From Capillidium heterosporum (taxonomy: Eukaryota; Entomophthoromycota; Entomophthoromycetes; Entomophthorales; Capillidiaceae), in contig WBMQ01000006.1 in assembly GCA_016630905.1 (NCBI GenBank), positions 434,001-498,000 on the forward strand: a DNA stretch of 64,000 bases, written 5' to 3'. Position numbers and translations under genes: made by a program. Below the pieces are notes generated by a model that was given only the letters and a program-made list of their open reading frames with translations, was not told where the DNA came from and did not search any database. The first letter of the stretch is position 1. The number at the start of each line of letters is the position of its first letter. Positions 8,220 through 40,833 of this stretch are shown piece after piece.

Positions 8220-8666
8220 CTACATGTATGATCCAATTATAGAGACTAAGGCAGGTACTATAACTCCCAAACCTAGAACTTTGATTGAATTACTGTTGGA
8301 ACTATCAATGCCAGTACCATCAATCGTAGGTGCTGGAGCTGAAGAATCGGTACCAGTCGCAATTAAGGAATCGGTACTAGCTGTAGTGTCAGTATTCATA
8401 TCCATACCGTCAGGCATACTATCGGTCGAGCTATCAGTAGTTTGACTATCGCTTGCAGTTTGAGTACGAGTTCTGACATGGCTTCTTGAAATACTGTCGG
8501 TGAAATTAGGGTCGTTGATCAAGGTAGCTGAACGATGGTGAACTTTGGTAGGAGTTTCTGTTGGTATTAATGAAGATTGGTTGGGGTCTTGAGAAACTTG
8601 GTTGGAATCTTGGGCCAAGGTGGAGGTTACTAGGAGGAAAGGTAATATAAAGGTGAGAGTTTTCAT
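8220..8666 (-). CDS. Ser/Thr/Asp-rich putative GPI-anchored surface protein
   Basis: This 148-residue protein begins with a textbook signal peptide (MKTLTFILPFLLVTSTLA, residues 1-18). A Ser/Thr/Asp-rich low-complexity body follows, expected to be heavily O-mannosylated. It ends in a hydrophobic tail (VLGLGVIVPALVSIIGS) after a small-residue SNS stretch, the layout of a GPI attachment signal. A TATATATA run lies about 75 bp upstream of the ATG. The neighbour at 10.06-10.52 kb has the same plan and orientation (leader starting MKT, Ser/Thr body, hydrophobic end), so the two are probably related in function if not in sequence. The role is inferred as a cell-wall or surface protein; no enzymatic domain is seen. 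Confidence 0.7.
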   Translation of the reverse strand: MKTLTFILPFLLVTSTLAQDSNQVSQDPNQSSLIPTETPTKVHHRSATLINDPNFTDSISRSHVRTRTQTASDSQTTDSSTDSMPDGMDMNTDTTASTDSLIATGTDSSAPAPTIDGTGIDSSNSNSIKVLGLGVIVPALVSIIGSYM

Positions 8667-10058: not shown

Positions 10059-10523
10059 TTACAAGTATGAATAAAAAGTCGAAGCCAAAGTAGCTAAAGC
10101 AACTACTGGTACCATAACACCAACCGCCTTACTATCGGAAGTATTGCCTGAAATGATATTAGAACTAGCAGATCTAGTATTAGTCACACTACCGCTACTA
10201 GCTGTCTTAGTACCACTACTGGTCTCCTTAGTAGTTTCCTTTTCAGTAGTTGACGAAACCTGAATTTTAGTTGTACTATCGGTTACTTTACTAGTAACCG
10301 TCTTGGACAAATCCAAAGTAGTTTTACTAGTTTCGGTGTTGGTAGAAGTAGGAGAAGTTAGACTTTCAGTTCCAGAAGCTGAAGTTGGGTCAGTGATGGT
10401 GGAGGTGAGTTTGGTGGTCCATTTAGTAGTATCGGTTTGGATAGTAAATACTCCTTCGCCTTGGGGCTGGGCAGCCACTAGTAGGGAAGTTAAGAAGATT
10501 AAGGGGAGAGTAAAGGTCTTCAT
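10059..10523 (-). CDS. Thr/Ser-rich putative GPI-anchored surface protein
   Basis: This 154-residue protein has a signal peptide (MKTFTLPLIFLTSLLVAAQ, residues 1-19), a Thr/Ser/Lys-rich body full of TST and SKT runs, and a C-terminal hydrophobic segment (VGVMVPVVALATLASTFYSYL) behind an NTSD stretch that could hold the GPI attachment site. A CTATATATAAAG TATA box lies about 110 bp upstream of the start. It matches the general plan of small fungal cell-wall mannoproteins. There is no catalytic motif and no cysteine framework. It is the last protein gene before the 20-kb stretch without conserved genes. Confidence 0.7.
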   Translation of the reverse strand: MKTFTLPLIFLTSLLVAAQPQGEGVFTIQTDTTKWTTKLTSTITDPTSASGTESLTSPTSTNTETSKTTLDLSKTVTSKVTDSTTKIQVSSTTEKETTKETSSGTKTASSGSVTNTRSASSNIISGNTSDSKAVGVMVPVVALATLASTFYSYL

Positions 10524-10639: not shown

Positions 10640-13334
10640 TATATAGTAGTTTTCAATTAGCGTACAAAAGGTAATATTTGTAATGCAAAGTTATCATAAC
10701 GTCATCTCAGTTTTCTTGGCGGGGAATTGGGATGGTATTAGTCATAACGCTGAGCTGCAATTCCTCTAAGCTTATTGGATGGGTTGATATTTTTGAAGTC
10801 TTATATGCTTGATATATAAGTATGTTTATTTTACCAATGTTGATAGGCTAAGCATTGGAAGCAGGAGGTGAATTTCAAAAATAGCGAACCATTTTTATTG
10901 AAAGAATAAGAGTTTGGAAAGTTTAGCAGGAATTTCAAGATCAAAACACCTATGCATATAGCGCTCTGAAATACATTAAGAAAGTTAATAGGAGAATACA
11001 TTTAAAATCCTTCAAACATTTTCAAACAATCCAAGGCTAAATTTATAATTAGAAAGTAACAAGACCAAAGTATATCTATTTTTAACTTTACAACTTGGAG
11101 AAGTGTAACTCAACTTCCATTGGTTCGAATTTGTACTCGAATCTTTCAAACCAACATCATATTTCAAAGGGAAGGTTCAAGCTTTTAGAATTTTGCCAAG
11201 ATTCAACAAGGCTCTAAAAATAAATTGGAATTAGGGCTAAAGTCCAAAATGATGTCAAAACTCCTTGCTATTCGTGAAGGTGAGTAGTTACTACTATGAG
11301 CGATAGGACAATTTGATAAGCTCTAAGCCTAGATACTCAAAAGTTTGGAAACTTAAGTTTATCCGGTGTTGGGGAATTATCCCGTTAGATATAGTTGCTG
11401 GACTAGATAGGCTCGAAAGAGTTGTCTGTCAAGCTTTTATCTAAGGTTCAAGAAGAGGTTTGCCAGAATCGTTTAGAATGCTAATCACCAACCTTGTAGG
11501 TACAAAGCAATTTTTATTCAGACTGTTGATATCTTTTATTAGATCTCATTTAATAAGTTGTGGCATAGCTATATGGTTGAAAACCACTGATATATGATTC
11601 GGTATTGATAAAAGCTTACTATGAAGGTAATAGGCATCAGTTCAGTTGTAGGTATTGTACTACAGGATCTTGAAAAATTGAAAGCGAATTCTGGTAGAAG
11701 CAATCGTAACTGAAGTTAAAATATAAGGTTTAGTGGCTATGGGTTAAAAGTGATAACTATGCAGCTTTATCGACAAGTATAGTTGATCGAGTGGGATGAA
11801 ATTTCTCTTTAATTATTTACGATTTCAACCAACGACAACTCTACTGGAAGATGCAATAGTTTAGCTGCACGATGGTTTATTAAAATGCTAAAGCTACAAG
11901 CTTCTGGTTCAACTACTTTCAATCCGTAAAGACTTACGTAAGAGTGATGGTAAACGATAGTTTCAAATTCTGTAGAGTAAGCTTATAGAATTTTTTAGTC
12001 GTATGCTATTCCAACAGCCAACTTTCGAATATGGTAGAGTAGTGATATCAACTTTGAACATGATACAAAAATTTTAACGTAGCTCGTTAAAGCATGCTAA
12101 TAGGTTACAAACTTTTGTGCAAATATGAGTAAAGACGCAAAAGTTTGAAGAGCATTAAAATAATTTCCAAATATCTATGAATATTTCAATACATAAAAGC
12201 TCTAGGCAAAAAGATGAAAATATAATTATAAAGCCACTTAGTGTCAAACTATAGTTTTAAAGACAATTTAAATACGAGTAGCAAATGTTTTTACCAGTCT
12301 TTGATTTCAAAAACTCTAGATAGGAATCCTATTATAGTAATCAGCTCGTTTAATCACTAGGATGAAATATCAATTATGCTAGCTTTAAGCTGATTGATAT
12401 ATATAGCCCTTTGTCTTGATACAAAATAGGTTAATTTTGAACTACAGCTATACATGACAGTAGGTAATATTTGGGGCAAAGATTCCCAAGTTACCAACCA
12501 AATGTATTTAGAAATATAGTAATAGACGTACAGAATACAAAGTTAACATCATAATAAAAGGGTATAAGCCACTCATATATATAAGGTCTAATTAAACCTT
12601 TAACTATTATAAAATATATCAGCATAAACTTTTGAAGAGCATTTGAAGTTGTATAAATTGGTTATAAGATTAAGCTACTCACTATTAAGATATATCAAAG
12701 AGCCTATATAGCTTTATATAAGTGAAGTAATGCCGTAAGATAATAGGATGTCAATAAAACAAAGCATTATGAACTTAACTTATATAATGATTTAAGTATT
12801 CTGATTATAGTAGAGATATAGCTTCAATTTTAGAACAGCATCCCAAGGTAATTTTATTAATATGTACAGTGGTAGAGAAGTTTTATCAATAGATCTGGGA
12901 TGGGTATATTTTATTTAAAACTACTGATGGGCTACATGTAAATATCAATAGTCAGCTTGGAAACATAGTACGATGTCTATCAAAGTATAAATTCTATTGA
13001 TATGCCTATACACAGTATACAAAATTCATAGTGATTCGTAATAAATTCTTTAGCCATAAAGATGGGTGCAAGGAAAGTGGATAAGTAATCCATATTGAGT
13101 AGTTTCCCTTTCAATAGCTTTTGATCTCCAATACTACCATTAGATCCAATCCAATAACTTTGGAGAGATAAAGGTGTTCAAAATCTTAGCAAAATATGGG
13201 ATTTACTGGTGTACTATTTGATAAGTTGAAAAAGAAATAGATCTACTAAACAAGTTTAAAAGATCCAGATGTAATACACAATAGAATGCAGTAAAGTCGA
13301 TGCATAAAGGCAAAGAACAATTTTATTTATATAT
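10640..13334. other. Gene-free AT-rich flank of the palindromic locus
   Basis: No coding frame, RNA gene or TTTAG[G/C]CTAAA element seen. The boundary with the palindrome is sharp near 13,335, where mirror identity with 26,382 ends. Confidence 0.45.
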
Positions 13335-13433
13335 TAGAAGAGACAGTTTAGGTAAGTATGTATATGCAGGCTGACATAGCAGTAATAGTTGGAATAGTGT
13401 TCTATGAAGAGAAAGTAGGTGTGGTGTGATAAC

Positions 13434-13490
13434 TTAGGCAGCCTTGGTAGAAACATCCTTGATAGTCTTGACGAGTTTGGGCCAGTACAT
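13434..13490 (-). CDS. MYWPK micropeptide, copy 1 (18 aa)
   Basis: Encodes MYWPKLVKTIKDVSTKAA and stop. It belongs to a ten-member family in this palindrome. Support for translation comes from comparing copies: codons 1-11 are almost invariant at the protein level while third positions vary (GTA/GTC, AAA/AAG, CCC/CCT), and the stop position is kept. A TATA box lies at 13,574-13,581 and the element TTTAGCCTAAA at 13,698-13,708, 208 bp upstream. The peptide is cationic with Trp/Tyr at the N-terminus and Leu, Val and Ile spaced for an amphipathic helix. It has no signal peptide and no C-terminal CAAX box. A 75-codon frame at 13,334-13,561 overlaps in another phase but is not kept in the other copies. 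Function unknown; membrane-active or signalling peptide is a guess. Confidence 0.62.
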   Translation of the reverse strand: MYWPKLVKTIKDVSTKAA

Positions 13491-14017
13491 TTTTGTAGAT
13501 GTGGTAGTAGAATACTTGGAAGAGTCTGAATATGGTAATTGTTTTGATGTCTACTTTTCATTCTGAACTCTTGCTTATATACCTTTTTAAAGCCACCCCA
13601 CTATTATAGAATTCGTAGCACGCAACTAAAGTTACAACACCTGTATTGCTAGATACCACCTTCCAAATTAGAAAAATTTCCAATCACTTAAAGTTCATTT
13701 AGCCTAAAATTAATAGGCACCTTGTGATCAAAACTAAACTAGAATGTCCGTATCTTAAAGATACCTTATATAGTAAGTTCATAAGTTACTGTGTCGTGAA
13801 ATTACTATTTATTCCACAGCCGAAGCTTTCAGCTTTGGATTCAATCAACTTGGCTACAAATCAGGCAACTTTACTAGAATCCTATCAAATTTGGAAATAT
13901 GGCCGTAGCATAGCATCCGAATAACTTAAGTATCTTCCTAATAGAGTAATTTTAGTCTTTGAAATGAAAATTGGGAATAGTCAAGGGTTACGAATGGCCT
14001 ATTGGATTCGTACTACT

Positions 14018-14028
14018 TTTAGGCTAAA
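14018..14028. promoter_or_regulatory. TTTAG[G/C]CTAAA element, likely regulator-binding site
   Basis: An 11-bp dyad with a single central G or C. Perfect copies: 13,698, 14,018, 15,476, 19,062, 20,669, 21,793, 24,247, 25,692 and 26,012. One-mismatch copies: 15,811, 17,941, 18,270, 18,281, 21,455, 21,466 and 23,914. One copy precedes every micropeptide gene by 177-219 bp. I found none outside the palindrome, though I did not search exhaustively. Confidence 0.6.
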
Positions 14029-14112
14029 TTCAATTTTCTAAAGTCTACACTCTTAGATTACTATCCAATATAGGTAATTTTAACTTTAGTTGAGTGTGAT
14101 GGTTTTCAAAAG

Positions 14113-14120
14113 GTATATAA
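14113..14120 (+). promoter_or_regulatory. TATA box of micropeptide copy 2
   Basis: TATATAAA lies 92 bp before the ATG at 14,205. All ten copies have TATATAA at an equivalent place (about 83-92 bp). It is followed by a shared leader containing ACATCAAAACAATTA, indicating a short unspliced 5' UTR. Confidence 0.6.
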
Positions 14121-14204
14121 ACAAGGCGTCGGTGCCAACAATAGACATCAAAACAATTAACAGATTCAAATACTTTCAAGTATCACACTGCCACCTATTC
14201 TAAA

Positions 14205-14261
14205 ATGTACTGGCCCAAACTCGTAAAGACTATCAAGAATGCTCCTACCAAGACTGCCTAA
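14205..14261 (+). CDS. MYWPK micropeptide, copy 2 (18 aa)
   Basis: Encodes MYWPKLVKTIKNAPTKTA, identical to copies 3, 8 and 9. The stop TAA is followed by a 3' region with TGCATATACATA and AATAAAA, likely the mRNA end. The downstream variant GTCACC is shared with copy 9 (its mirror) rather than copy 3 (its neighbour). Confidence 0.62.
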   Translation: MYWPKLVKTIKNAPTKTA

Positions 14262-15242
14262 GTCACCACACTCTGACTACATCCATCTACATAGAACCCT
14301 ATTCCGGCCATTACTGCCATGCCGGTCTGCATATACATACTTAAATCAACCATCATATCTAATGCCTAAATAAAATCTCGTTTTATCCTTCATACCATTT
14401 CTACTGTACTTATGACTACTAAGCTTGTATAGTTCAGCTTTTAACTTTATTACCTATTCTGTAAATATTTTCCCTTTCGAGTTAAATACATCACGAAAAC
14501 ACCAGGTTCCTGAGATTTAGATTGTGAATAAAGCCAATCAGCCATTAGATAAAGCATCTCTAAACTTTGATAAAACTTGCTGATCGTATAACAAACTCTT
14601 CAGCATTCTATTGGCACTATAGAATCAAATTAATTCTGTAGCAATTAAATCGTGTACAGCATCATTCTCAATCCAATATTAAATGCCTCATTGATGTAGC
14701 AAACTTATATTTTCCTTCAATTCGAAACAAGGTTTCATTTATGAAAATTCATCTAATATTACCTAGTTTAATATTGGTGGGGCTATATAGATATCTTTTA
14801 GATGGAACAGGTTTTGAGCAGTAGCTTATAACGCCACTAACCGAGATGTCCGACTATATTCGAAATCAATTGCATCATTAAGTAGTAGAAATACTGATTA
14901 TGGTGAAGTTGAATCTGAGTTTGAAAGGACAAGTTCTATCATTTCACAAGTCAATAGATATCAATTTAGGGTAAAGTTATTGGATAAACCAAATAGTTTT
15001 CAGGAACCTGGTGTTGTAGATACTATATTCAAAATTACAAAGCGTTTAATTATAGTCTAATTGACAGCAATAGATTAAATATCAAGTTATAAAGTACAAA
15101 TTAGAATTCGATATAAGGAAAAGAACAGTTTTATTTAGGCATTAGATATGATGGTTGATTTAAGTATGTATATGCAGACCGGCATGGCAGTAATGGCCGG
15201 AATAGGGTTCTATGTAGATGGATGTAGTCAGAGTGTGATGAC

Positions 15243-15299
15243 TTAGGCAGTCTTGGTAGGAGCATTCTTGATAGTCTTTACGAGTTTGGGCCAGTACAT
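15243..15299 (-). CDS. MYWPK micropeptide, copy 3 (18 aa)
   Basis: Same protein as copy 2, on the opposite strand in the nested palindrome. Element TTTAGCCTAAA at 15,476-15,486. Just after the stop it reads GTCATC, like mirror copy 8. Confidence 0.62.
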   Translation of the reverse strand: MYWPKLVKTIKNAPTKTA

Positions 15300-16036
15300 T
15301 TTAGAATAGGTGGCAGTGTGATACTTGAAAGTATTTGAATCTGTTAATTGTTTTGATGTCTATTGTTGGCACCGACGCCTTGTTTATATACCTTTTGAAA
15401 ACCATCACACTCAACTAAAGTTAAAATTACCTATATTGGATAGTAATCTAAGAGTGTAGACTTTAGAAAATTGAATTTAGCCTAAAAGTAGTACGAATCC
15501 AATAGGCCATTCGTAACCCTTGACTATTCCCAATTTTCATTTCAAAGACTAAAATTACTCTATTAGGAAGATACTTAAGTTATTCGGATGCTATGCTACG
15601 GCCATATTTCCAAATTTGATAGGATTCTAGTAAAGTTGCCTGATTTGTAGCCAAGTTGATTGAATCCAAAGCTGAAAGCTTCGGCTGTGGAATAAATAGT
15701 AATTTCACGACACAGTAACTTATGAACTTACTATATAAGGTATCTTTAAGATACGGACATTCTAGTTTAGTTTTGATCATAGGGTGCACTATTGACATAT
15801 GCAGATTAATTTTAGGCTGAATTAAGCTTGAGTGATTGAAAAGTTTTCATTTATGGAAGGCAACATCGTCTTTGAAAATAGCTATAGTGCTAGTAAGGTT
15901 ACAAAGACTGGTTTAGATCCCCAATTATGCAACATTTCTTAGAAAGTATATAAAGGTGTGATCAGAATGAGTAACAACATCAAAACAATTGACATACTCA
16001 AAAACTATCAAATACCCTACTACCACATCTACAAAA

Positions 16037-16093
16037 ATGTACTGGCCCAAACTCGTCAAGACTATCAAGGACGCTCCTATCAAAGCCGTCTAA
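16037..16093 (+). CDS. MYWPK micropeptide, copy 4 (18 aa)
   Basis: Encodes MYWPKLVKTIKDAPIKAV, identical to mirror copy 7. Compared with copy 2 it has GTC for GTA (silent) plus N12D, T15I, T17A and A18V, so variation concentrates in the last seven residues. TATA at 15,947-15,954; element variant TTTAGGCTGAA at 15,811. The 3' region has CTGCATATACATA and AATAAAAC. Confidence 0.62.
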   Translation: MYWPKLVKTIKDAPIKAV

Positions 16094-16429
16094 GCTACAT
16101 AATTCAAATCCTTTCTATCCATATATAAAGCGCTGTTTCAAGCATTCCTTCCATGCTGGCCTGCATATACATATTTGCATTCATATCCCTAATTTCCTAA
16201 TAAAACACTTTTCTACTCCATTCCAAGTCTCACTAATTTCATCAAAGTATAAATCTGTTGGCTATTCCAACTAAATCGTATACCTAACAAGCCACAATAG
16301 AGCAGCTTTTATTTGTTTATTTTGTTGCGTGTTTTTCCAGGTTTATCAATCAAACTTATTTATATTCTAGTTAATTGTATCAAGTTAATTTTAATGTATT
16401 TCGAAATTCAATTGTGCCTCAAGCTTCAG

Positions 16430-17668
16430 GTAGTTAACAAAATTCTGACTTGTGGCTTTAAATACTTAAAGCAATAACTATATAGTTTTAAGGCATATTA
16501 TTTAACACATGTTTTTATTAAATACTTTATTGGATTTATCTGAACATATTTACTTTCCTTGGCCTGTAATGGCCTTCCATACTTACTATGATTGATCTTC
16601 AAATATGCTAGTCTTCCAACTTTCAACATATTTAGCTTCATACAGTAAGCTAAAACATGGTTATTTTACATTTTTTTGTTATCAATAAAAAGGCAGTTAA
16701 AGTTATAGAAATCAGTCATTGTCGATTATTTCAAAGGTCAACTGCGTTTATGATTCGATAGGTTCATATCTTTAGTTCTAATTTATAATTCAAGGCGAGC
16801 ATTTTAAACTATTTTATATCCAATAAATTTTAACATAGCTTGTGTTTGTGTTTACGATACAATATATTCCTACATCTCTCATACTAAAAACCATCCTATT
16901 TTTACTACCATTTAATACAAATTAGCAAAGTTAAATAAAGACATTGAATAGTGAAGTTGCTAATATATGTCTAAATTTGATTTAAATATATATATGATTA
17001 AAATATTTTTGGCGATGTCGACTTCCATTTTTTATTGCCATATCAACCAGAATTCAAGCCTTATACTAAATTTAAAACTATATTAGAAATCAAAGCTAAA
17101 TTAACTAAATTTTATAATTATTTAGTTAGTATAAGTAAATAATGACAAAACTTTTCCATACTATAGATTTTGATCTGATCGATAGTAGTAGCAAGGAGTT
17201 GTATCCTTGACCACGAAGTTTCCTAGTAATTTAATATGATACTGTTGGCTACTTAGTCTCTACCTAGATTTCCTAACTTTGATAAATGTCTAATACTATA
17301 TATAGTATTATGCCGATAATACCTATAGAATACTTAAAAATACTTGGGAGTTTGATTTAAAATTGAAGCCTGATGAGAACAACTACCTTAATTGGTTACT
17401 ATTATATAGCAGTTCATTGATACATATTAATTCCTATAGACCTAAAGCATTTTATATTTTGTATATATAATATTAGTTCAAATCTTAAATTGTTAATATA
17501 TATGTAGTTGAAGACAAAGAAAAAGAGAAAGATGTAAAAAGCAGTCTATTTATTGAATAGTTTGTATGGAATTGAAAGAAATGTTCTATCCAAATCATTT
17601 ATAAAAAATATATACATATGCAGCATGAAACAGGAGATAATAATACAGGAAAGAGATTGAAAGGCTTC
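16430..17668. other. Gene-free part of the left arm, diverged from its mirror
   Basis: No coding frame or element seen. Its mirror (about 22.14-23.3 kb) is only weakly similar. The plus-strand frame at 22,625-22,972 there has no match on the mirrored side and no domain. Confidence 0.4.
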
Positions 17669-17725
17669 TTAGGCAGTCTTGATAGGAATATTCTTGACAG
17701 TTTTTACGAATTTGGGCCAGTACAT
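17669..17725 (-). CDS. MYWPK micropeptide, copy 5 (18 aa, diverged)
   Basis: Encodes MYWPKFVKTVKNIPIKTA. It differs from copy 2 by conservative changes (L6F, I10V, A13I, T15I) plus silent ones while keeping length and the MYWPK start, the strongest sign that the frame is under selection. TATA at 17,811-17,817; element variant TTTAGCCTAAG at 17,941-17,951. An overlapping plus-strand frame at 17,679-17,891 is a shadow. Confidence 0.6.
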   Translation of the reverse strand: MYWPKFVKTVKNIPIKTA

Positions 17726-18269
17726 TTTTGAAAAGGCAGTAGTAGAGATTTTGGAAGTGTTTAGAACTGTTAATTATTTTAATGTCTATTATTCATTCCG
17801 ATCGTCTCCTTATATACCTCTGAGAAAGCATCGCATTTTCCAAAATTTAACTTGCTCGTCAAGCTCTACTAGCGTTATAGATATTTGTTAAGTTGATGCT
17901 GCTTTCCAAATTAGAAAGCTTTCCAATCACTCCAAATTCATTTAGCCTAAGTTCATCTGCCTTATGTCGACACCGTACCTTGTGATTTATTCTAAATTTG
18001 ACTGCCCTTCAACTTAAAATTACCTTATAAAGCAAGTGTATAAGTTAAGATATCGTGAAATTGTTATTTATTCTTTTGGTTGGATCTATCGATTTTTAAA
18101 CTCGATTGTTTTTGGTACAGATTAGGCAATTTTGTCAAAGTGTTATCAAGTTTGGAAATATTACAAGGGTGATTTGTTCTCAAGGACTTGATATTATCTT
18201 AATAGGGCAATTTTAAAGGCTCGAAATGAAGGTTTACAAAAGGTGGAGACTTACTAAGATCCTATTGAC

Positions 18270-18291
18270 TTTAGGCTAATTTTAGGCTAAT
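18270..18291. promoter_or_regulatory. Two adjacent TTTAGGCTAAT elements without a micropeptide gene
   Basis: Direct tandem of the element, mirrored at 21,455-21,476. No MYWPK frame lies within 300 bp, so this may be what is left of a lost unit or a control site for the inner region. Confidence 0.5.
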
Positions 18292-18769
18292 TTTAATTTT
18301 TTGTAGTCGGAATTCACCATCAAGTCTAACTAGTATTTGAAACTACTGTGGTTGAGTAAGGGTTTGACTAACTGTATAATAATGCGATGTTCTCGGACTC
18401 ATATATCGATTATCACACCCACTCTTGCTACTTGGGTATATATTCATCTAGAACTGGGAATAAATCGGTATAGATCTGCTATTGATGGTCACATAAAGTG
18501 GCATTAATGTAAAATTGATAGTGTTTAGATAAAATCTAATGCTATATTATATACTATATAGATCTAGGCCGTGGACATCATTAAAAAGTTCTGATAATAT
18601 ATGATACATCTAATATAGTGATTTCTTAAACCCATGCTATATAAACTCTATGAATACAGTAGTACATAGTTCTGACCGTTTATTTTATTTCTATGTATAA
18701 ATTAGTTAGGCATCTATTATTATAAATCATATGTATTGCCGTATTCACAATTAATGAATATGAATGATT

Positions 18770-20975
18770 GGCACCACTTTGGAAATAATATATATGTTTT
18801 TGCCGATCTATATGTTGCCTATAACTCAATTTAAGATTCTTACAAGTGTCTGCCAATATATTTAGGATGTGTGGTACTTTTAAAGCTATAAACTCAAAAG
18901 CATCAATCAGACACAGATCCAAGTATATCTGCTATACTATCGCATTTTTACATCCCATCACAGCACCCCTATTCGATTAAACTATACTTACCGAAAAATA
19001 AGGCCTCACGACAATACCTTCCAAAAGCATATACTTTCTAATCACCTTCAATTCAAATAAATTTAGCCTAAAATTAATTTTTTTCATCCCCGATTCGTGT
19101 TTCCCTTCGAATTTCCAATAACCACCTATCCAAATCGAATACTCTAGTTTGGTACCGACTTTTCCGTATTTCTACCAGTATGCTAGTATATTTAGAACTT
19201 TGGATTAGTTTTATTGCTGATATAGTAATTATCCACTTGTTATATGAAAAGTTGGCAATATAAAAACAGGTTGTTGAGGCTGCAGCTATTTAGGCAGAAC
19301 TGGCTAATTTTATATCGCTTTATTGTATTACGGTTAATGTAGATATTGGAGTATATTGTACGTTTACTAAATTTATACGTATGACCCGCTTCCGATTCAG
19401 TTTATCCCTAAATTTTAATAAAAGTTTTGGTAGAGCTTTGAATACGTGTTTGTAAGTATAAGCTCTTGCCATAATAGGGTGTGTTTTTAGTCGATAGCTT
19501 ATTTTATATCTTTGTCTATTATATAAATCGCATATCCTTTTTTAGCTGCATCACCCGTAGCATCTACTTTTAATATTGTAGAGAAATATTGAGGTTGCTG
19601 GTGCTACAAGAGCTAGATTTCATCGGATATATAACAGCCGATTGTAGTTGATACTTTGTCTATTGTTAATAGACTAACCTCAAGCTTTCTTGCGAAAACC
19701 TATTTCCTTTTTTGGAAATCATTTGTTTCATCAAAAATTTGCTTTGGAATTGATATTCAGCCTCTCATATTAACCTTCTATGTTCGAATTGTTATTAATA
19801 GAGAAGTTTGATATAAACTGTTTGGTACTATACCTATAAATTATAGATTGCTACTAGAGTTAAGATCTAGTCTAATTTTACAATCACTTTAGTACAGTCA
19901 AATTCGGATACAGCCCCATGAGTAAAACTAGATCAGCTGTACTCACGCTCAACTATAGTAACATATTTCTTTGCTTTTTAGGTTTAATATAGCCATTCCC
20001 AAGAAAAATAGCGTAAACACTATATCTCTACCAGAACTGTACATATATAAATTTCATGGTGTTAATGAATCAATACTTTTACAGCAAAAGATATTTATGT
20101 TCTTAATACTGACAAAGCACTCTGATGAAATCTAGCCTTTATAGTACGTTTAGTATCAATATTGTTCTATAATGTCAAAATAGATACTACGAGATATACA
20201 GCTTTTATAATAAAGACAAAGGTGTAAGGTAGATATAATAGCGATTGAAAACACACCTATTATGGCAAGAGCTTATACTTACAAACACGTATTCAAAGCT
20301 CTACCAAAACTTTTATTAAAATTTAGGGATAAACTGAATCGGAAGCGGGTCATACGTATAAATTTAGTAAACGTACAATATACTCCAATATCTACATTAA
20401 CCGTAATACAATAAAGCGATATAAAATTAGCCAGTTCTGCCTAAATAGCTGCAGCCTCAACAACCTGTTTTTATATTGCCAACTTTTCATATAACAAGTG
20501 GATAATTACTATATCAGCAATAAAACTAATCCAAAGTTCTAAATATACTAGCAATACTGGTAGAAATGTAAAAAGCCGGTGGTATGTTTTAAGTTGAAGA
20601 ATCCGATTTATATTTGCTGGAGGTTGGAGGTTTGAAGGGAAGCTAGGTTCGGGGATGAAAAAGTCCATTTTAGGCTAAATTTATTTGAGTTGAAGGTGAT
20701 TAGAAAGTATATGCTTTTGGAAGGTATTGTCGTGAGGCCTTATTTTTCGGTAAGTATAGTTTAATCGAATAGGGGTGCTGTGATGGGATGTAAAAACGCG
20801 ATAGTATAGCAGATATACTTGGATCTGTGTCTGATTGATGCTTTTGAGTTTACAGCTTTAAAAGTACCACACATCCTAAATATATTGGCAGACACTTGTA
20901 AGAATCTTAAATTGAGTTATAGGCAACATATAGATCGGCAAAAACATATATATTATTTCCAAAGTGTTACTAATT
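18770..20975. repeat. Inner arms and core of the giant palindrome
   Basis: 18.77-19.5 kb matches the reverse complement of 20.24-20.97 kb almost base for base, fading towards the centre; a short shared stretch still pairs 19,612 with 20,136. Perfect elements lie at 19,062-19,072 and 20,669-20,679. Open frames here (18,680-18,922 and 20,471-20,668, minus) are not preserved between the two arms, so I do not call them genes. Confidence 0.75.
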
Positions 20976-22021
20976 ATTCGCACTTCGTTAGTTTGTAGTA
21001 CGGCTATATGAATGAGATATAACAGTAGATACTATTTAATTTTTACACGGAATTAAAAGCAAACTATTAAAAGCTATGTACTAGCGTACTCATAGATTCG
21101 ATATCTCGTGAATCTAGAAAAGTTTTAGAATAGGTCTGTCAAAGACCTTTACAGATTTTTCAAAACCATATCTAGATACAGCTATTTATATAATAAAAGA
21201 TATCATAGGTTCATACTTGAAAATTTCTAATATCATCTCAAACTTCACTTTACGTAACTAACAATACCTATATTATAAGGGTGCATTCTCAAGTCTAGAC
21301 TACGATCTGTTCGTTTGACATGGGTGGATGTGACTACAGCTATATTAATCTGAAAACATCGCATTATTGTAAGTTGTACCAACTCTCAATCTCAGCTATA
21401 TTGGTTTCAAATACAAGTTCATTTGAATGATAGATTCCACCTACCAAAATTAAAATTAGCCTAAAATTAGCCTAAAGTCAATAGGATTTTAGTAAGTCTC
21501 CACCTTTTGCAAACTTTCATTTAGATTGTTAAAATTACCAAATTAGGAAAACATTTAAATCCCTAAGAACAGACTATACTTGTAATATTTCTAAACTGAT
21601 TAGCACTTTGGCAAAGTTACCTAATTTGTAGAGAAAGCAATCGGGTCCAAAAATTGAATAGATCCGAATAAAAGTATAAATAGTATTTTCACGATCCTAT
21701 AACTTATCCACTTACTTTGTAAAGTAACTTTGAGAAGGCGGACTAGTAAATTTTAAAATATATTTCAGGATATAGACGAGGTATACCTTAACTTTAGGCT
21801 AAATAAAGTTGGAGCGATTAGAAAAGTTGCATTTATGGAAGATGACACTAACTTATAGGATGCTGAGAAGATCAGTTTAGCGACAAGGGATGGACTAGTT
21901 AACTAAAAATGCGGATAGGATTTGAAAAGGTATATAAGCAAGTGATCGGAATTTATAAACGACACCAAATCAATTAGCCGATCTAACCGTTCCCAAGTAT
22001 TCCAACCCAATAACTTTTACA

Positions 22022-22135
22022 ATGTACTGGCCTAAACTCCTTAAAACCATCAAACATACCACTTCCACCTCTTCTAAAATGTATAGATCCAAACTCGCCA
22101 AAACAATCGTGGAGACTCCCCCCACAACTATATAA
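22022..22135 (+). CDS. MYWPK micropeptide, copy 6 (37 aa, internally duplicated)
   Basis: Mirror partner of copy 5 but twice as long. It begins MYWPKLLKTIK and, after a His/Thr/Ser-rich linker, has a second module starting KMYRSKLAKTI, then a Pro/Thr tail and a stop. The second module lines up with the first (MY-x-x-KL-x-KTI), so this is a two-unit fusion made by tandem duplication. TATA at 21,931-21,936; element TTTAGGCTAAA at 21,793-21,803. A minus-strand frame (21,970-22,194) overlaps and is a shadow. Confidence 0.6.
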   Translation: MYWPKLLKTIKHTTSTSSKMYRSKLAKTIVETPPTTI

Positions 22136-23640
22136 GAAGCCTTCATTCGTATACCCTTACTTTTCTGTTTCATAGCATGCTGCATATATATCATCTACAA
22201 ATAATTCAAGCTTCTATTATAAATTTAATACAAAATACTCAATAAATAGACTACTTTATATAGTTTTCACTTTACATATCAATTATTTATATTAGTTTTG
22301 TATTAAAGACTGGCATAAACTAGCAATGAATCTGCGCTACTATTCAAAAGTTTCTGTCCATGGCTCTTTTTAGTATAAACCTTATTTTTTTAGAATACAT
22401 CGCCAAATTTTCAAGATATTTCATGGACTTTACCAATATAGTAATATTTTTGAGGTTGTAAAGTTCATGTATTTCATTTAAGTAGCTAATGAATGTTATC
22501 TGATGAACCTAGGAGCGAATGAATTAAAGACATAGCTTCTTCCTACTATCAAAATATTGTGTTAAAGCCTACTTTTAAGAATGCTTAGCTATAAATTTGC
22601 AAGTTAATATATAGGCCATAATATATGCTTTCTTTTGAACTTTGGAGAGCTGGCTTATATAACGTTATAAATCTTGACCTCTTACATATGTACTATCGAA
22701 TGGTGATATTTTGCACCAAGAACAAGCTATCAGCTATTTTTATTCGATTCACTTGTAATAAAAAAAGAATATCTTCTATAACTTATAGTGTAGGAATAAA
22801 GCCTTTTGCAGTCAATATAGAAAAAATTTGCATTGCTATTAGGCATATACATATAAATTCCAGTAAAGCTTCCTTAAATTATATATTAAGTCCAAAAATC
22901 TCAACCTATCGAAATGTGAACACTGTTGACCTCCAAACAATGGACATCGATAGACTTTCATACCTCTGTTAATCATCAAAGCTAATTTGAAGGTATAGCA
23001 CAGTAAATGTTAGGGTCTATTATTTAATGTTAAATGGGTTAAATATCTGATGCCTAGCTTTATTTAACTGAGTATATCGACTTCAATATGAATTTATAAT
23101 GAATTTATGTGTCCCAGTCCAAATACAGCCAATTTACAAAAAGTAAAAATAAGCACATGCAAATAGCAACTACAAAGAAAGCAAATATAACGTATATGAA
23201 TTAAAAATATATATTAGAGTATAGCTACATTAGTTGATTTTAAACTTTATTTATTAATAGTTTAAAGCAAAGTCATACTCTCGAAATTTTAGCATACTTC
23301 CGATAGTAAATCAATAGCTCTCTCGGTTTAAAAAGTATATTGTAATTAACTTGATACAATTAACTAGAATATAAATAAGTTTGATTGATAAACCTGGAAA
23401 AACACGCAAAAAAATAAACAAATAAAAGCTGCTCTATTGTGGCTTGTTAGGTATACGATTTAGTTGGAATAGCCAACAGATTTATACTTTGATGAAATTA
23501 GTGAGACTTGGAATGGAGTAGAAAAGTGTTTTATTAGGAAATTAGGGATATGAATGCAAATATGTATATGCAGGCCAGCATGGAAGGAATGCTTGAAACA
23601 GCGCTTTATATATGGATAGAAAGGATTTGAATTATGTAGC

Positions 23641-23697
23641 TTAGACGGCTTTGATAGGAGCGTCCTTGATAGTCTTGACGAGTTTGGGCCAGTACAT
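23641..23697 (-). CDS. MYWPK micropeptide, copy 7 (18 aa)
   Basis: Identical protein to copy 4, its mirror. Element variant TTCAGCCTAAA at 23,914-23,924; TATA around 23,780. Confidence 0.62.
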   Translation of the reverse strand: MYWPKLVKTIKDAPIKAV

Positions 23698-24433
23698 TTT
23701 TGTAGATGTGGTAGTAGAGTATTTGATAGTTTTTGAGTATGTCAATTGTTTTGATGTTGTTACTCATTCCGATCACACCTTTATATACTTTCTAAGAAAT
23801 GTTGCATAATTGGGGATCTAAACCAGTCTTTGTAACCTTACTAGCACTATAGCTATTTTCAAGACGATGTTGCCTTCCATAAATGAAAACTTTTCAATCA
23901 CTCAAGCTTAATTCAGCCTAAAATTAATCTGCATATGTCAATAGTGCACCCTATGATCAAAACTAAACTAGAATGTCCGTATCTTAAAGATACCTTATAT
24001 AGTAAGTTCATAAGTTACTGTGTCGTGAAATTACTATTTATTCCACAGCCGAAGCTTTCAGCTTTGGATTCAATCAACTTGGCTACAAATCAGGCAACTT
24101 TACTAGAATCCTATCAAATTTGGAAATATGGCCGTAGCATAGCATCCGAATAACTTAAGTATCTTCCTAATAGAGTAATTTTAGTCTTTGAAATGAAAAT
24201 TGGGAATAGTCAAGGGTTACGAATGGCCTATTGGATTCGTACTACTTTTAGGCTAAATTCAATTTTCTAAAGTCTACACTCTTAGATTACTATCCAATAT
24301 AGGTAATTTTAACTTTAGTTGAGTGTGATGGTTTTCAAAAGGTATATAAACAAGGCGTCGGTGCCAACAATAGACATCAAAACAATTAACAGATTCAAAT
24401 ACTTTCAAGTATCACACTGCCACCTATTCTAAA

Positions 24434-24490
24434 ATGTACTGGCCCAAACTCGTAAAGACTATCAAGAATGCTCCTACCAAGACTGCCTAA
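24434..24490 (+). CDS. MYWPK micropeptide, copy 8 (18 aa)
   Basis: Same protein as copies 2, 3 and 9. Element at 24,247-24,257; TATA at about 24,343-24,350. The longer frame starting at 24,468 is out of phase and not conserved. Confidence 0.62.
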   Translation: MYWPKLVKTIKNAPTKTA

Positions 24491-25458
24491 GTCATCACAC
24501 TCTGACTACATCCATCTACATAGAACCCTATTCCGGCCATTACTGCCATGCCGGTCTGCATATACATACTTAAATCAACCATCATATCTAATGCCTAAAT
24601 ACAATCCTCGTTTTTCCTCATTTACCATTTCTACTGTACTTATGACTGTATTTAACTATTGTTCATTAGCTAAATTAACCTTATTTGACCTATTCTCAAA
24701 TAAGTTGCTCCCTTTAGAGTGTGAATATACATCACGATAATACACAGTCCTGAAACTTTGATAATTGTGATCCATAACAACCCTTCAGCATATCTATTGA
24801 CTGTGAAATGATAGAACTTTCTTCAAGCAGATTCAATCGTGTCACATCATTCATCATTTCTACTACTTAAATGCCAATTGATTCGATATAGCGGAACATT
24901 CGTTTTTGGCGTTATGCACTAGCTCAAGGTGTTCATCTAAAGATTCTATCTAAATTCACCATATTAAATAGGTAATATTAGATATTTTCATAAATGAAAC
25001 TTGTTTCAATTGAAGGAAAATATAAGTTTGCTACATCAATGAGGCATTTAATATTGGATTGAGAATGATGCTGTACACGATTTAATTGCTACAGAATTAA
25101 TTTGATTCTATAGTGCCAATAGAATGCTGAAGAGTTTGTTATACGATCAGCAAGTTTTATCAAAGTTTAGAGATGCTTTATCTAATGGCTGATTGGCTTT
25201 ATTCACAATCTAAATCTAGCAACCTTATTGTAGATACTATATTCAAAATTACAAAGCGTTTAATTATAGTCTAATTGACAGCAATAGATTAAATATCAAG
25301 TTATAAAGTACAAATTAGAATTCGATATATAAGGAAAAGAACAGTTTTATTTAGGCATTAGATATGATGGTTGATTTAAGTATGTATATGCAGACCGGCA
25401 TGGCAGTAATGGCCGGAATAGGGTTCTATGTAGATGGATGTAGTCAGAGTGTGGTGAC

Positions 25459-25515
25459 TTAGGCAGTCTTGGTAGGAGCATTCTTGATAGTCTTTACGAG
25501 TTTGGGCCAGTACAT
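25459..25515 (-). CDS. MYWPK micropeptide, copy 9 (18 aa)
   Basis: Same protein as copies 2, 3 and 8. Element at 25,692-25,702, 177 bp upstream; TATA near 25,600. Confidence 0.62.
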   Translation of the reverse strand: MYWPKLVKTIKNAPTKTA

Positions 25516-26229
25516 TTTAGAATAGGTGGCAGTGTGATACTTGAAAGTATTTGAATCTGTTAATTGTTTTGATGTCTATTGTTGGCACCGACGCCTTGTT
25601 TATATACCTTTTGAAAACCATCACACTCAACTAAAGTTAAAATTACCTATATTGGATAGTAATCTAAGAGTGTAGACTTTAGAAAATTGAATTTAGCCTA
25701 AAAGTAGTACGAATCCAATAGGCCATTCGTAACCCTTGACTATTCCCAATTTTCATTTCAAAGACTAAAATTACTCTATTAGGAAGATACTTAAGTTATT
25801 CGGATGCTATGCTACGGCCATATTTCCAAATTTGATAGGATTCTAGTAAAGTTGCCTGATTTGTAGCCAAGTTGATTGAATCCAAAGCTGAAAGCTTCGG
25901 CTGTGGAATAAATAGTAATTTCACGACACAGTAACTTATGAACTTACTATATAAGGTATCTTTAAGATACGGACATTCTAGTTTAGCTTTGATCACAAGG
26001 TGCCTATTAATTTTAGGCTAAATGAACTTTAAGTGATTGGAAATTTTTCTAATTTGGAAGGTGGTATCTAGCAATACAGGTGTTGTAACTTTAGTTGCGT
26101 GCTACAAATTCTATAATAGTGGGGTGGCTTTAAAAAGGTATATAAGCAAGGGTTCAGAATGAAAAGTAGACATCAAAACAATTACCAGATTCAGACTCTT
26201 CCAAGTATTCTACTACCACATCTACAAAA

Positions 26230-26286
26230 ATGTACTGGCCCAAACTCGTCAAGACTATCAAGGATGTTTCTACCAAGACTGCCTAA
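26230..26286 (+). CDS. MYWPK micropeptide, copy 10 (18 aa)
   Basis: Encodes MYWPKLVKTIKDVSTKTA, one residue different from mirror copy 1 (A17T). Element at 26,012-26,022; TATA at 26,139-26,146. Mirror identity ends about 95 bp downstream. Confidence 0.62.
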   Translation: MYWPKLVKTIKDVSTKTA

Positions 26287-26382
26287 GTTATCACACCACA
26301 CCTACTTTCTCTTCATAGAACACTATTCCAACTATTACTGCTATGTCAGCCTGCATATACATACTTACCTAAACTGTCTCTT

Positions 26383-27665
26383 CTAATACATACACAACGA
26401 TTCATTATATACTATATCCTAATGAATACGACCTACTATTAATAAACTATTCAACTATTTTACAAATATTTTTAATCTGTAATATATAACTTTTACTTTA
26501 TATATTATATGTTTTTTATATATATGCTATTATATTATTTTGACTCATATCTCGAGATTATTAATCTAAATTATTGTTATCTATACAAATATAGAGCAAA
26601 AAAATTTGTATTGTAATCAAACTTTACATTTATCGATAATGACTGATATGTATCTACTATTTTACAAATACAAATAGACTACAAAGATAACTAGCATGCA
26701 AATGGCAAACTTTTAGTTAAGCTTCGATATGGTCAGTAACTTATCGGTTTACCTTCTTTGACCTTAATACATTCCCAATCAACTGTCGCTAGTTTTAATT
26801 CGCAGCTATACATCGCCACATCTTGCAATAAACTCATTCTGATTCTATTGATTCTAATATAATTTTCAACTGTGTAAGTTTTGAATTTTCCTCACATATA
26901 AATAAATTTTGTACTCAACTCAATAACTATTTATAAATATCAATAAGCATTCCAATTAACCTTACCTTGAAACATCTCTTTAATATTACTTTAGCTAGTT
27001 ATATTTACTTTATATATACTTTCGGAATTCATATTTTTACAAATTGAACATAGTAAAGCTCAAACCCATATTGAATAGACCTATAGAGTCAAGTATAAAA
27101 TTTAATAACCGTTCCTAAAATGAAAGGCACTTTACTAGAAATTGTAATTATAAGAAATTTCCCAATACTACTGAACGTCAGGGATAAGATTGATGAATTC
27201 ATCTACTATATACGTATATTTAAGCTAATAGGGGCCTTTTCTAAAGACTAAACTTTAGCAAATATTGAGGTATCAATTATATATAAGTCTATAGCTATTT
27301 TATAAGGCATATAACAGTAGTCTGTATGGATTTAGCAAATTTGAAACCTACTAAGTCTAAAGTCTTAATTAGACTTTTAAAGTATCAAGAAATTTCTGAT
27401 ATGCAAAATTTCCTATATAAATTAAAATAGTAAATAAATAGTCTTGTGAAAGCTATACTGTATTACTACCAAGTTGATATTCAGTTGCTTTATCAGGTTC
27501 TATTGATATGCTTTCTCGAATTACAAGACTCTATTAGGTTTTTAAGGCACAGTTCCATCAGTACAAGGCAGCTTCAAATGGCTATATGAAAATAACATGC
27601 TAAAGCTTACTATGTACATACTATAAAGAAAATCAAACTAATTAAAGTAATTTATTTAAAAAAAA
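26383..27665. other. AT-rich gene-free stretch
   Basis: No gene, element or repeat supported. Confidence 0.4.
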
Positions 27666-27750: not shown

Positions 27751-27845
27751 AGGCTGTCAGAGACAGCTATGGCAGGGGAAACAGATCAGGCTGTCAGAGA
27801 CAGCTATGGCAAGGGAAACAGATCAGGCTGTCGCAACAGCTATAG
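27751..27845. repeat. 37-bp tandem repeat, about 2.6 units
   Basis: Units at 27,751-27,787 and 27,788-27,824 differ by one base; a partial third runs to 27,845. Each contains the dyad GCTGTC-AGA-GACAGC. Confidence 0.85.
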
Positions 27846-33948: not shown

Positions 33949-34716
33949 ATGTGTCAAAACCAAGAGTTAGTACGACGTGACAATGGCTCCAAAACTTCAG
34001 CTGAAGCAGCTGTAAAATCAGTACGCCAAGGCTTAAAAGACATCGACGGCGGCAAGCAACCTGGCGACATTGAGGTTTTAGTCAACGCCAAATTCCAAAC
34101 CCCAGGCACCTTACACATGATGGTAGGAGCTTCACCACCCATAACCTTAACTTCTAAATCCAAAGATCAAGATGTAAGCCAAACTGTAACTTACACAGCC
34201 AGAATGGCCATTATGGAGGCCACCTATTACAACAAGGATGATCCTGTCTGTCTCAACGAAATTAGTTTCACATCCAAAGTCACACCAGGTGCCCAGTTGA
34301 AGTTAACATACCCTCTAGTCGACTACTGTCAGCTCGATATGGGAGATACCAAAAACCAGTGTATCAAGTTCGATACCAAAGATAAGTTGGATGTCATTTT
34401 GAATAGATTCAACGACTGCAATAAGGAAACTTCAAATGATTATGAGAAGATTGCCAATTGCTTCTGTAAGGCGTTTATCGTCAAGAAAGCCAATTCCGAT
34501 ACTAAATCTTCGTCGGATGTTAGTGATTCGAGTTCGGAAACCAAGTCGAGTACTAGTGTAGAGTCGGAAACTAGTAGTGTTCCAAGTTCGAAGCCTAGTA
34601 GTGGAGCCAACACGTTGGCAACTGGTTCAACTTCCAATTCCTTGCCTATAGCTCCTAACTTTGTCTCACTGTTCGTACTTTTACTTTTCTTTTATGTCTT
34701 GCGGTTTAAGCATTAG
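33949..34716 (+). CDS. Surface protein with Cys-containing domain, Ser-rich stalk and hydrophobic C-terminus
   Basis: 255 residues: a soluble domain (about 1-185) with several cysteines (YYNKDDPVCL, DYCQL, NQCIKF, NDCNK, NCFCK), a Ser/Thr/Glu stalk (about 186-225), and a hydrophobic end (FVSLFVLLLFFYVLRFKH). The tail and stalk look like a GPI or tail-anchored surface protein, and the paired cysteines suggest disulfides outside the cytosol. Yet the only in-frame ATG after the TATA box gives a hydrophilic N-terminus with no signal peptide. The leader may lie on an unseen upstream exon or be lost. The LVRR at residues 7-10 resembles a Kex2-type processing site. No family recognised. Confidence 0.6.
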   Translation: MCQNQELVRRDNGSKTSAEAAVKSVRQGLKDIDGGKQPGDIEVLVNAKFQTPGTLHMMVGASPPITLTSKSKDQDVSQTVTYTARMAIMEATYYNKDDPVCLNEISFTSKVTPGAQLKLTYPLVDYCQLDMGDTKNQCIKFDTKDKLDVILNRFNDCNKETSNDYEKIANCFCKAFIVKKANSDTKSSSDVSDSSSETKSSTSVESETSSVPSSKPSSGANTLATGSTSNSLPIAPNFVSLFVLLLFFYVLRFKH

Positions 34717-39855: not shown

Positions 39856-40833
39856 ATGTCAGCAATTATTCGACCTTCTATTAGCCCAAGTCCTTCAACT
39901 CTAGATCCTACAACCTTGAGTCAAATATTCGGCTACCTTTCTATATTCTGCTGGGTAATGGTATTCATCCCCCAGATTATCACCAACTTCCAAGCCAAAT
40001 CCTCTACCTCCATTTCCCTTTCCTTCATTATACTTTGGGGGATAGGTGACATTTTCAACTTGGCCGGTAGCAGTTGGCCAAAATTTAGTTTGGACGACTA
40101 TACTCTTGGGCGCCTACTACTTTATTTCCGATATGATATTGCTTGGTCAGCTCCTTTACTACCGACATTATGAAAGTGTGGAAAAAATTGATGGAGCTAG
40201 TAAATTATTACATGGTGCCAATTGTACACATCCGATCAGCTACCAGAGTTTTCTTACTGAAGGTGTAGCTGAAGATGATCCTACTGGTCCTCAGAATTCG
40301 ATCTACAAGTCTAGTTTTAGGAATTGTTGCTTTGGTTTCAAGATTTCGATTTTACTTTTGTTAGCGATACCCCTACTGCTGTATTATTACTACAACGGAT
40401 TATATAGTTTCATTGGAGTTGCTTTCAACGCCAACCATATCGTAGTATGGGCTCAAATATGTGGATGGATATCAACCATCTTATTTTGCATAGCCAGTAT
40501 CCCTCAAATAATGTTGAACTATAAGAGGAAGTCTACTGAGGGGCTGTCAATGTGGATGTTTATCTTCAGTTGCATAGGTAACTTGACCCAAATTTTGGTA
40601 CTTTATCTTTTAGGTTTATATATCCACTAATTTTATTGTTCAATTTAGTCCTTAGTTACCTATAATAACGATATGTCCTATTTGATAAGTGTAACGCCTT
40701 GGATTGCTGGTGCCGCCCTACCTATCTGCTTCGAATCTGTGGTAAGTTGAATCTGCTATCTTTTATTTAAGATTAATTGGAACTCATTGTCAACTTTGTA
40801 TAGATTTTCGTGCAGTACTTTTACTACCGTTAA
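39856..40833 (+). CDS. PQ-loop vacuolar transporter, copy 1, with a 1-nt frame break
   Basis: Seven-span PQ-loop protein of the Ypq1/PQLC2 type, which in relatives exports cationic amino acids from vacuole or lysosome. Exons 39,856-40,597, 40,649-40,741 and 40,804-40,833. Seen: first PQ motif in WVMVFIPQIITNF, LWGIGDIFNLAG, second PQ motif in IASIPQIMLNYKRKST, GNLTQIL, then after splicing PWIAGAALP and a C-terminal QYFYYR. Comparison with copy 2 (42.4-43.4 kb) shows one extra base at about 40,072 (GGT AGC A GTT GGC); without it the gene is 287 codons and matches the paralogue across GDIFNLAGxxGQ. As written, translation would end at 40,173. Sequence error or recent loss cannot be told apart here. 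Confidence 0.85.

What the first reader, a model, noticed from the sequence alone, without database searches (positions are those of the whole stretch)
13335..26382. Ten-copy micropeptide gene family in a giant palindrome
Ten 18-codon genes (one internally duplicated to 37 codons) all start MYWPK and alternate in strand along a 13-kb palindrome. Diverged copies keep the peptide but vary at third codon positions, and each has the same promoter layout. The product is cationic with an aromatic N-terminus and amphipathic spacing, without signal peptide or CAAX box. I know of no described family like this. It may be a membrane-active, competitive or signalling peptide maintained in high dosage.
Basis: partly seen in the sequence, partly recalled or inferred. 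Interest (0 to 1): 0.9.

Follow-up and report, generated by a model that had tools for sequence, protein, structure and literature searches.

The report
Yeast-like fungus micropeptide genes in palindrome
A fungal chromosome carries ten related genes, nine of them for a positively charged peptide of 18 amino acids, arranged as mirror-image pairs; the sequence shows that the peptide itself is under selection and in most copies its codons look tuned for strong production, but what it does is still unknown.

Summary
Ten ORFs starting MYWPK (nine of 18 codons, one of 37) alternate in strand in an imperfect, mosaic palindrome at about 13328-26392. They form five divergent pairs; genome searches found no other copy. 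The peptide core is under selection: in codons 2-12, third positions vary like the leader (6 of 11 columns versus 39 of 60), first and second positions do not (4 of 22; P=0.0003). pN/pS is 0.16 over codons 1-12 but 0.54 over 18 codons of types A-D. Codon choice leans towards the uL3 gene in three of five types (eight of ten copies), weakly in a fourth, not in the fifth. All ten copies have TATA at -91/-92; TTAGSCTAA occurs 14 times in the palindrome and nowhere else in the window. Best reading: a lineage-specific, leaderless, cationic micropeptide whose copies gene conversion keeps alike. Membrane action, export and signalling are untested. The closest architecture is the Cryptococcus pheromone gene repeats, but the CAAX box is absent. 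No related species could be searched.

The parts
13328..26392 (.). imperfect mosaic palindrome holding the whole family; centre near 19868
   Evidence: self-comparison; mirrored-arm identity per 250 bp
13434..13490 (-). g1, MYWPKLVKTIKDVSTKAA, 18 codons + TAA; diverges with g2
14205..14261 (+). g2, MYWPKLVKTIKNAPTKTA
15243..15299 (-). g3, same ORF as g2; diverges with g4
16037..16093 (+). g4, MYWPKLVKTIKDAPIKAV
17669..17725 (-). g5, MYWPKFVKTVKNIPIKTA, diverged copy
22022..22135 (+). g6, 37-codon copy; its 3' part repeats leader tail plus ORF in frame and lacks W and P of the motif
23641..23697 (-). g7, same ORF as g4; diverges with g8
24434..24490 (+). g8, same ORF as g2
25459..25515 (-). g9, same ORF as g2; diverges with g10
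26230..26286 (+). g10, MYWPKLVKTIKDVSTKTA
13575..14120 (.). example of a shared divergent promoter (g1/g2): a TATA box at each end, TTTAGCCTAAA at 13698 and TTTAGGCTAAA at 14018
18267..18391 (+). promoter-only half-unit, no ORF found (expected partner of g5); doubled TTAGGCTAA at 18271/18282
   Evidence: nhmmer E=0.0016
19015..19079 (-). promoter-only half-unit of the central unit
   Evidence: nhmmer E=9.6e-07
20667..20726 (+). promoter-only half-unit of the central unit
   Evidence: nhmmer E=2e-05
21353..21486 (-). promoter-only half-unit, weak (expected partner of g6); doubled TTAGCCTAA at 21456/21467
   Evidence: nhmmer E=0.034
14327..14374 (+). example 3' end signal CTGCATATACATA plus AATAAA (g2); CTGCATAT lies +44 to +67 after the stop in 10 of 10

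Best explanation
A lineage-specific family of strongly expressible genes, each encoding one free, leaderless, cationic micropeptide with a fixed 12-residue core (MYWPKLVKTIK + N/D/H, with small changes in the two diverged copies) and a loose tail. SHOWN from sequence: the core frame is under purifying selection, no codon signal extends upstream of this ATG, three of five types (eight of ten copies) use codons biased towards a highly expressed gene, and every copy sits behind a strict TATA / TTAGSCTAA-type promoter; the genes form five divergent pairs, and with four promoter-only halves the locus reads as seven mirrored units. INFERRED: gene conversion between inverted copies keeps most copies alike and the dose high; a factor that recognises TTAGSCTAA switches all copies on together. 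INFERRED, weaker: the peptide acts as such, without further cleavage or lipid, through its aromatic N-terminus and basic amphipathic core, most likely by binding membranes (inside the cell, or outside after non-classical export). My split: real selected peptide genes 0.93; dosage kept by gene conversion 0.75; membrane-acting peptide 0.4.
For: Core codons 2-12: variable columns by codon position 4/11, 0/11, 6/11; positions 1+2 against leader P=0.0003, position 3 against leader P=0.52. Relocating the observed column patterns gives as few residue differences in 0.38% of 5000 trials; at the leader's rate in 0 of 2000. The leader has no periodicity: 14/20, 13/20, 12/20. Codon index against uL3 is 0.397, 0.506, 0.543, 0.322 for types A-D, reached by 0.24%, 0.06%, 0.014% and 1.4% of 7006 stop-free 54-nt frames in the palindrome (the genes themselves included), and 0.086-0.225 in their other two frames; 16 window ORFs score 0.181-0.314. 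TATA spacing and 3' signals. No other copy found in the genome. Mosaic arm identity fits conversion tracts.
Against: No transcript or peptide data. Only five distinct sequence types, so the statistics rest on 10 variable columns and lean on g5 and g6; the excess of variable third positions alone is P=0.042. Over all 18 codons of types A-D pN/pS is 0.54, and codons 13-18 show no constraint (pN 0.26, pS 0.20). Codon bias against window-gene usage: A P=0.062, B 0.014, C 0.0076, D 0.18, E 0.51; the second half of g6 scores higher in another frame (0.161 against 0.247). The codon reference is a single gene. Helix amphipathicity is only marginal. No orthologue could be examined.
Confidence: 0.6

Rival explanations
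1. Non-lipidated signalling peptide (pheromone-like), made in many copies and exported without a signal peptide.
For: Several copies of a tiny gene in divergent or inverted, homogenised repeats are described for Cryptococcus pheromone genes (passages of PMC12510652, and PMC526376).
Against: No CAAX and no cysteine at all; no signal-peptide-like stretch or Kex2-type repeats by inspection. No mating gene among the 10 window ORFs scanned with Pfam (10 of the 20 listed at 120 codons or more). Genome searches for the MATalpha_HMGbox and STE3 families found nothing, but no control rang and introns break frames, so this is uninformative.
Confidence: 0.15
2. Precursor of a modified peptide: the fixed core is a recognition leader and the variable last six residues are the product.
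For: N-terminal 12 residues conserved, codons 13-18 unconstrained among types A-D; the MSDIN family of Amanita is a family of short precursor genes with a fixed N-terminal leader and a variable core (passages of PMC5159998).
Against: Four copies are identical and others paired, which favours dose over diversity; no follower region; tails are similar to one another; no processing enzyme among the 10 window ORFs scanned.
Confidence: 0.08
3. Intracellular micropeptide that binds a large complex (ribosome, proteasome, mitochondrial inner membrane) and is needed in high dose.
For: No export signal seen; short, basic, abundant-type codon usage in types A-C.
Against: No partner known; four central half-units carry no gene; housekeeping micropeptides would be expected to have recognisable relatives, and none was found in Pfam or PDB for the 37-mer, though both are weak tests for so short a query.
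Confidence: 0.3
4. The selected thing is DNA or RNA, not the peptide: a promoter array, centromere, origin or non-coding RNA in which an ORF happens to be open.
For: The four central half-units keep the promoter element without an ORF; 'repeat-associated' regional centromeres of Candida tropicalis (title and abstract start in the listing, PMC4741521; that the repeats are inverted is recalled).
Against: Codon-position pattern, frame-specific codon bias and leader control; folding the 162-column TATA-to-stop alignment gives 7 pairs, none with a two-sided change, -1.05 kcal/mol; no Rfam match in the window at gathering threshold; no similar DNA elsewhere, although some yeasts have chromosome-specific centromere sequence (recalled).
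Confidence: 0.05

Closest known systems
Cryptococcus MFa / MFalpha pheromone genes (MAT locus repeats)
   Same: Several copies of a very short peptide gene, often divergent or inverted, embedded in repeats thought to be kept alike by gene conversion (passages of PMC526376; PMC12510652).
   Different: Those products carry a CAAX box (passage seen for Kwoniella; for Cryptococcus recalled) and sit in the mating-type locus; here no cysteine, ten copies, one compact palindrome, apparently another fungal phylum, and no mating gene recognised nearby.
MSDIN family of Amanita
   Same: Family of short precursor genes named after a fixed N-terminal motif (passages of PMC5159998).
   Different: MSDIN precursors are 33-37 residues with a 10-residue leader, variable core and 17-residue follower; nine of the ten here are 18 residues, lack a follower, and several are identical.
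Phenol-soluble modulins of staphylococci
   Same: Leaderless, short, amphipathic peptides encoded in several copies (recalled; only a paper listing with abstract starts was seen).
   Different: Bacterial; no sequence relation claimed or tested.
Gene-converted palindromes of mammalian sex chromosomes
   Same: Inverted arms kept alike by conversion (abstract start of PMC3723533 in listing; passage of PMC526376).
   Different: Far larger and with ordinary-sized genes (recalled); arms there exceed 99.9% identity while here identity is a mosaic.

Membership tests
Fungal lipopeptide pheromone (a-factor / MFa type) | C-terminal CAAX box | tested here: not met
   No cysteine in any of the six distinct peptides.
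Fungal lipopeptide pheromone (a-factor / MFa type) | linked to or co-regulated with mating genes | tested here: inconclusive
   10 of the 20 window ORFs listed at 120 codons or more were scanned with Pfam, none mating-type; genome searches for PF04769 and PF02076 empty but without a working control.
alpha-factor-type secreted pheromone | signal peptide and protease-released repeats | tested here: not met
   By inspection only, no predictor was run: 18 residues with lysines at 5, 8 and 11 and no hydrophobic stretch; no repeats except the diverged one in g6.
MSDIN-type cyclic peptide precursor | leader + variable core + conserved follower, 33-37 residues | tested here: not met
   Nine of ten are 18 residues with no follower; feature definition.
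Leaderless amphipathic membrane peptide (works-like claim) | cationic amphipathic helix | tested here: inconclusive
   Charge +3 to +4 (18-mers); core helical moment 0.50-0.54, permutation P 0.036-0.051.
Leaderless amphipathic membrane peptide (works-like claim) | binds or permeabilises lipid membranes | not testable with these tools
   Needs a peptide and liposomes.
Protein-coding gene | codon-position-dependent constraint in the claimed frame | tested here: met
   for codons 2-12; not for codons 13-18.
Regional centromere with inverted repeats | CENP-A occupancy, one such locus per chromosome | not testable with these tools
   No similar DNA found on other contigs; occupancy unknown.

The most novel reading that the evidence does not exclude
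A fungus uses a leaderless, unlipidated, unprocessed 18-residue peptide as an abundant, coordinately switched effector or signal, and keeps it potent by storing ten copies in a self-correcting palindrome under a TTAGSCTAA-binding regulator: a fungal counterpart in function to leaderless bacterial amphipathic peptides.
Probability: 0.25. Interest if true: 0.85.

Novelty: new variant of a known kind. Interest (0 to 1): 0.62.

Why it matters
Genes of 18 codons are normally discarded by annotation, and selection on them is rarely demonstrable because one gene gives too few sites. Here ten paralogues at one locus supply an internal alignment with its own yardstick (leader and third positions), which makes the case for a selected micropeptide unusually clean. 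It also suggests that inverted-repeat gene conversion, described for sex-chromosome and pheromone genes, can serve a tiny orphan peptide, and it offers a compact locus that could be removed whole to learn what such a peptide does.

Tried and rejected
Larger ORF: a 75-codon ORF overlaps g1 and g10 in another frame (13334-13561 -, 26159-26386 +). Rejected: that frame has a stop inside the core in types A and D, and the g10 version has a codon index of 0.179.

Start upstream of MYWPK: the frame is open for 16-22 codons upstream of the ATG (open-frame lengths), but there is no codon periodicity there and no conserved in-frame ATG (reading).

First exon of a spliced gene: positions after the core vary between types, with no conserved donor site (reading).

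Structured RNA: no support. Transposon: by eye no target duplication at the arm edges and no similar DNA elsewhere (the queries were 13300-16450 and 16400-23350, not the mirrored rest).

TTTAGSCTAAA followed within 2-25 bases by TGATT matched 9 places, 4 of them in the palindrome, control 3. The leader word ACATCAAAACAATT has 11 exact matches, 8 in the palindrome; none of the other 3 (L057-L059) is followed by a MYWPK ORF within 200 bases.

Organism: best PDB matches of RNA polymerase II and I second subunits and uL3 suggest an ascomycete, no more precise (the source organisms of those chains are recalled, not printed). A protein-database search with the neighbouring zinc-cluster protein scored 8000 candidates, none at E <= 0.001.

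Errors of mine: searches used the wrong strand of L055; both were redone and the first results are discarded.

Literature: looked for such a family and I saw none in the listings (0, 20 of 75, 1 of 1, 2 of 3 and 0 papers listed); some searches looked for comparisons. Only passages of three papers were seen. The library is open-access PMC papers only.
Full report
What is there. The window is contig C41:434001-498000 of an unnamed 29.5-Mb, 44-contig genome. Its proteins (fungal zinc cluster, PQ-loop, FG nucleoporin), an apparent short intron in the RNA polymerase I second subunit and best PDB matches of RNA polymerase subunits and uL3 point to an ascomycete; the species is not known. In 13328-26392 lie ten ORFs that begin MYWPK, alternate in strand and end in TAA. 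They form five divergent pairs: g1/g2, g3/g4, g5/g6 (4.3 kb apart around the centre), g7/g8, g9/g10. None of the ten contains a CTG codon in frame (reading of the sequences), so a CTG reassignment would not alter the peptides.

Architecture. Profile search finds four more promoter halves without a gene, at 18267-18391, 19015-19079, 20667-20726 and 21353-21486 (E 0.0016, 9.6e-07, 2e-05, 0.034). With these the locus reads as seven mirrored divergent units, 14 halves, of which 10 keep the peptide; the last of the four is weak. Identity between mirrored arms is a mosaic: 98-100% over 13328-14327, 15328-16327 and 18828-19077; 57-65% in all seven blocks over 16328-18077; 59-93% in the others. Right half of unit 1 and left half of unit 2 are also identical inverted copies (13717-14375 with 15129-15787, 100%). 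Homogenised blocks inside diverged surroundings are what gene conversion would leave (inference). An assembly fold-back is unlikely because the arms differ by single bases even in the similar blocks (g1 against g10) and widely elsewhere.

Gene anatomy. In 10 of 10 copies TATA begins at -91 or -92, and an 11-mer equal or close to TTTAGGCTAAA lies at -187 to -229 (exact in 7; g4, g5 and g7 have one mismatch); CTGCATAT lies 44-67 nt after the stop in 10 of 10, and AATAAA at +105 to +114 in 8 of 10 (g10 at +154, none in g8 within 250 nt). Between types the 11-mer is 82-100% identical and TATA 89-100%, the spacer between them 47-60%, the leader 52-80%. TTAGSCTAA occurs 14 times in the palindrome (simulated mean 0.30, maximum 3 of 300) and 0 times in the other 50,935 bases.

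Is the peptide selected? Five distinct types were used (A=g2, B=g4, C=g10, D=g5, E=g6), one representative each; g1, g3, g7, g8 and g9 were dropped as copies of these (g1 differs from g10 by one residue). Pairwise identity over codons 1-12 is 78-97%, over codons 13-18 33-89%, over the 3' region 42-61%. In codons 2-12 variable columns by codon position are 4/11, 0/11, 6/11; the leader gives 14/20, 13/20, 12/20. Position 3 varies like the leader (P=0.52), positions 1+2 far less (P=0.0003). The excess at third positions alone is P=0.042, the lack at second positions P=0.007. pN/pS (raw proportions, summed over pairs) is 0.16 over 12 codons of all five types, 0.54 over 18 codons of A-D, and codons 13-18 of A-D show no constraint (pN 0.26, pS 0.20). 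Placing the observed column patterns at random gives as few residue differences in 0.38% of 5000 trials, and 54% of all trials carry a stop; at the leader's rate, 0 of 2000 trials. The whole test rests on 10 variable columns, so the selected part is the 12-residue core.

Codon use. With the uL3 gene (386 codons, L055) as yardstick, types A-D score 0.397, 0.506, 0.543, 0.322 and E 0.219; the 16 window ORFs score 0.181-0.314. Against random synonymous codons drawn from window genes P is 0.062, 0.014, 0.0076, 0.18 and 0.51. The other two frames of types A-D score 0.086-0.225; the first 12 codons of E score 0.276 against 0.141 and 0.197, its second half 0.161 against 0.121 and 0.247. Of 7006 stop-free 54-nt frames of the palindrome, 0.24%, 0.06%, 0.014% and 1.4% score as high as A, B, C and D. 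So frame and high-expression bias agree for A-C (eight of ten copies), weakly for D, not for E.

Uniqueness. Genome searches with the 18-mer (10 of 10 matches here), the 37-mer (7 of 7 here) and palindrome DNA (11 of 11 and 8 of 8 matches here) find nothing elsewhere. These are best-candidate searches, so distant relatives could be missed. The 37-mer has no Pfam or PDB match. The large protein database takes no query under 40 residues.

How it may work. Shown: selected core frame, shared strict promoter, many copies, expression-type codons in most copies. Inferred: one factor on TTAGSCTAA drives all copies; conversion keeps the set alike; the product is a free basic peptide with aromatic N-terminus. 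Membrane binding is my preferred action, because of +3 to +4 charge and an amphipathic core (moment 0.50-0.54, P 0.036-0.051), but this support is marginal, and binding to an intracellular complex is nearly as likely.

Compared with what is known. Cryptococcus pheromone genes are the nearest in layout: several copies, often divergent, in repeats held to be maintained by gene conversion (passages). Membership fails on the CAAX box. MSDIN genes are the nearest family of short precursor genes (passages); membership fails on length and follower. The combination seen here did not appear in the listings of five literature searches of the held library (20 of 75 papers listed).

Verdict. I hold the peptide genes as near certain by sequence, their dosage role as likely, and their action as open.

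Noticed in passing
40133-40630 (+) and 42623-43444 (-): Two PQ-loop transporter genes, inverted relative to each other, 70-72% alike in two DNA stretches of 224-263 bp, with a third relative on contig C5.
   Followed up: no
27751-27843: Tandem repeat of 37 bp, 2.5 copies, 92% matches, close outside the palindrome.
   Followed up: no
8220-8666 (-), 10059-10523 (-), 47225-47641 (+), 33949-34716 (+): Ser/Thr-rich ORFs, three with a hydrophobic N-terminus like a signal peptide and all with a rather hydrophobic C-terminus by eye; they look like cell-surface proteins, two of them next to the palindrome.
   Followed up: no
10524-30693: The palindrome lies in a stretch of some 20 kb without any ORF of 120 codons or more.
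   Followed up: partly
genome-wide: TTTAGSCTAAA is about twice as frequent as its reversed control (74 against 36; 9 of the 74 are in the palindrome), so the element may be used at other genes too.
   Followed up: partly
52711-53094 (+): A cupin-like segment that reminds me (recall only) of CENP-C/Mif2; PDB gives only weak matches, one named cupin (E 0.3-0.96), and Pfam none.
   Followed up: partly
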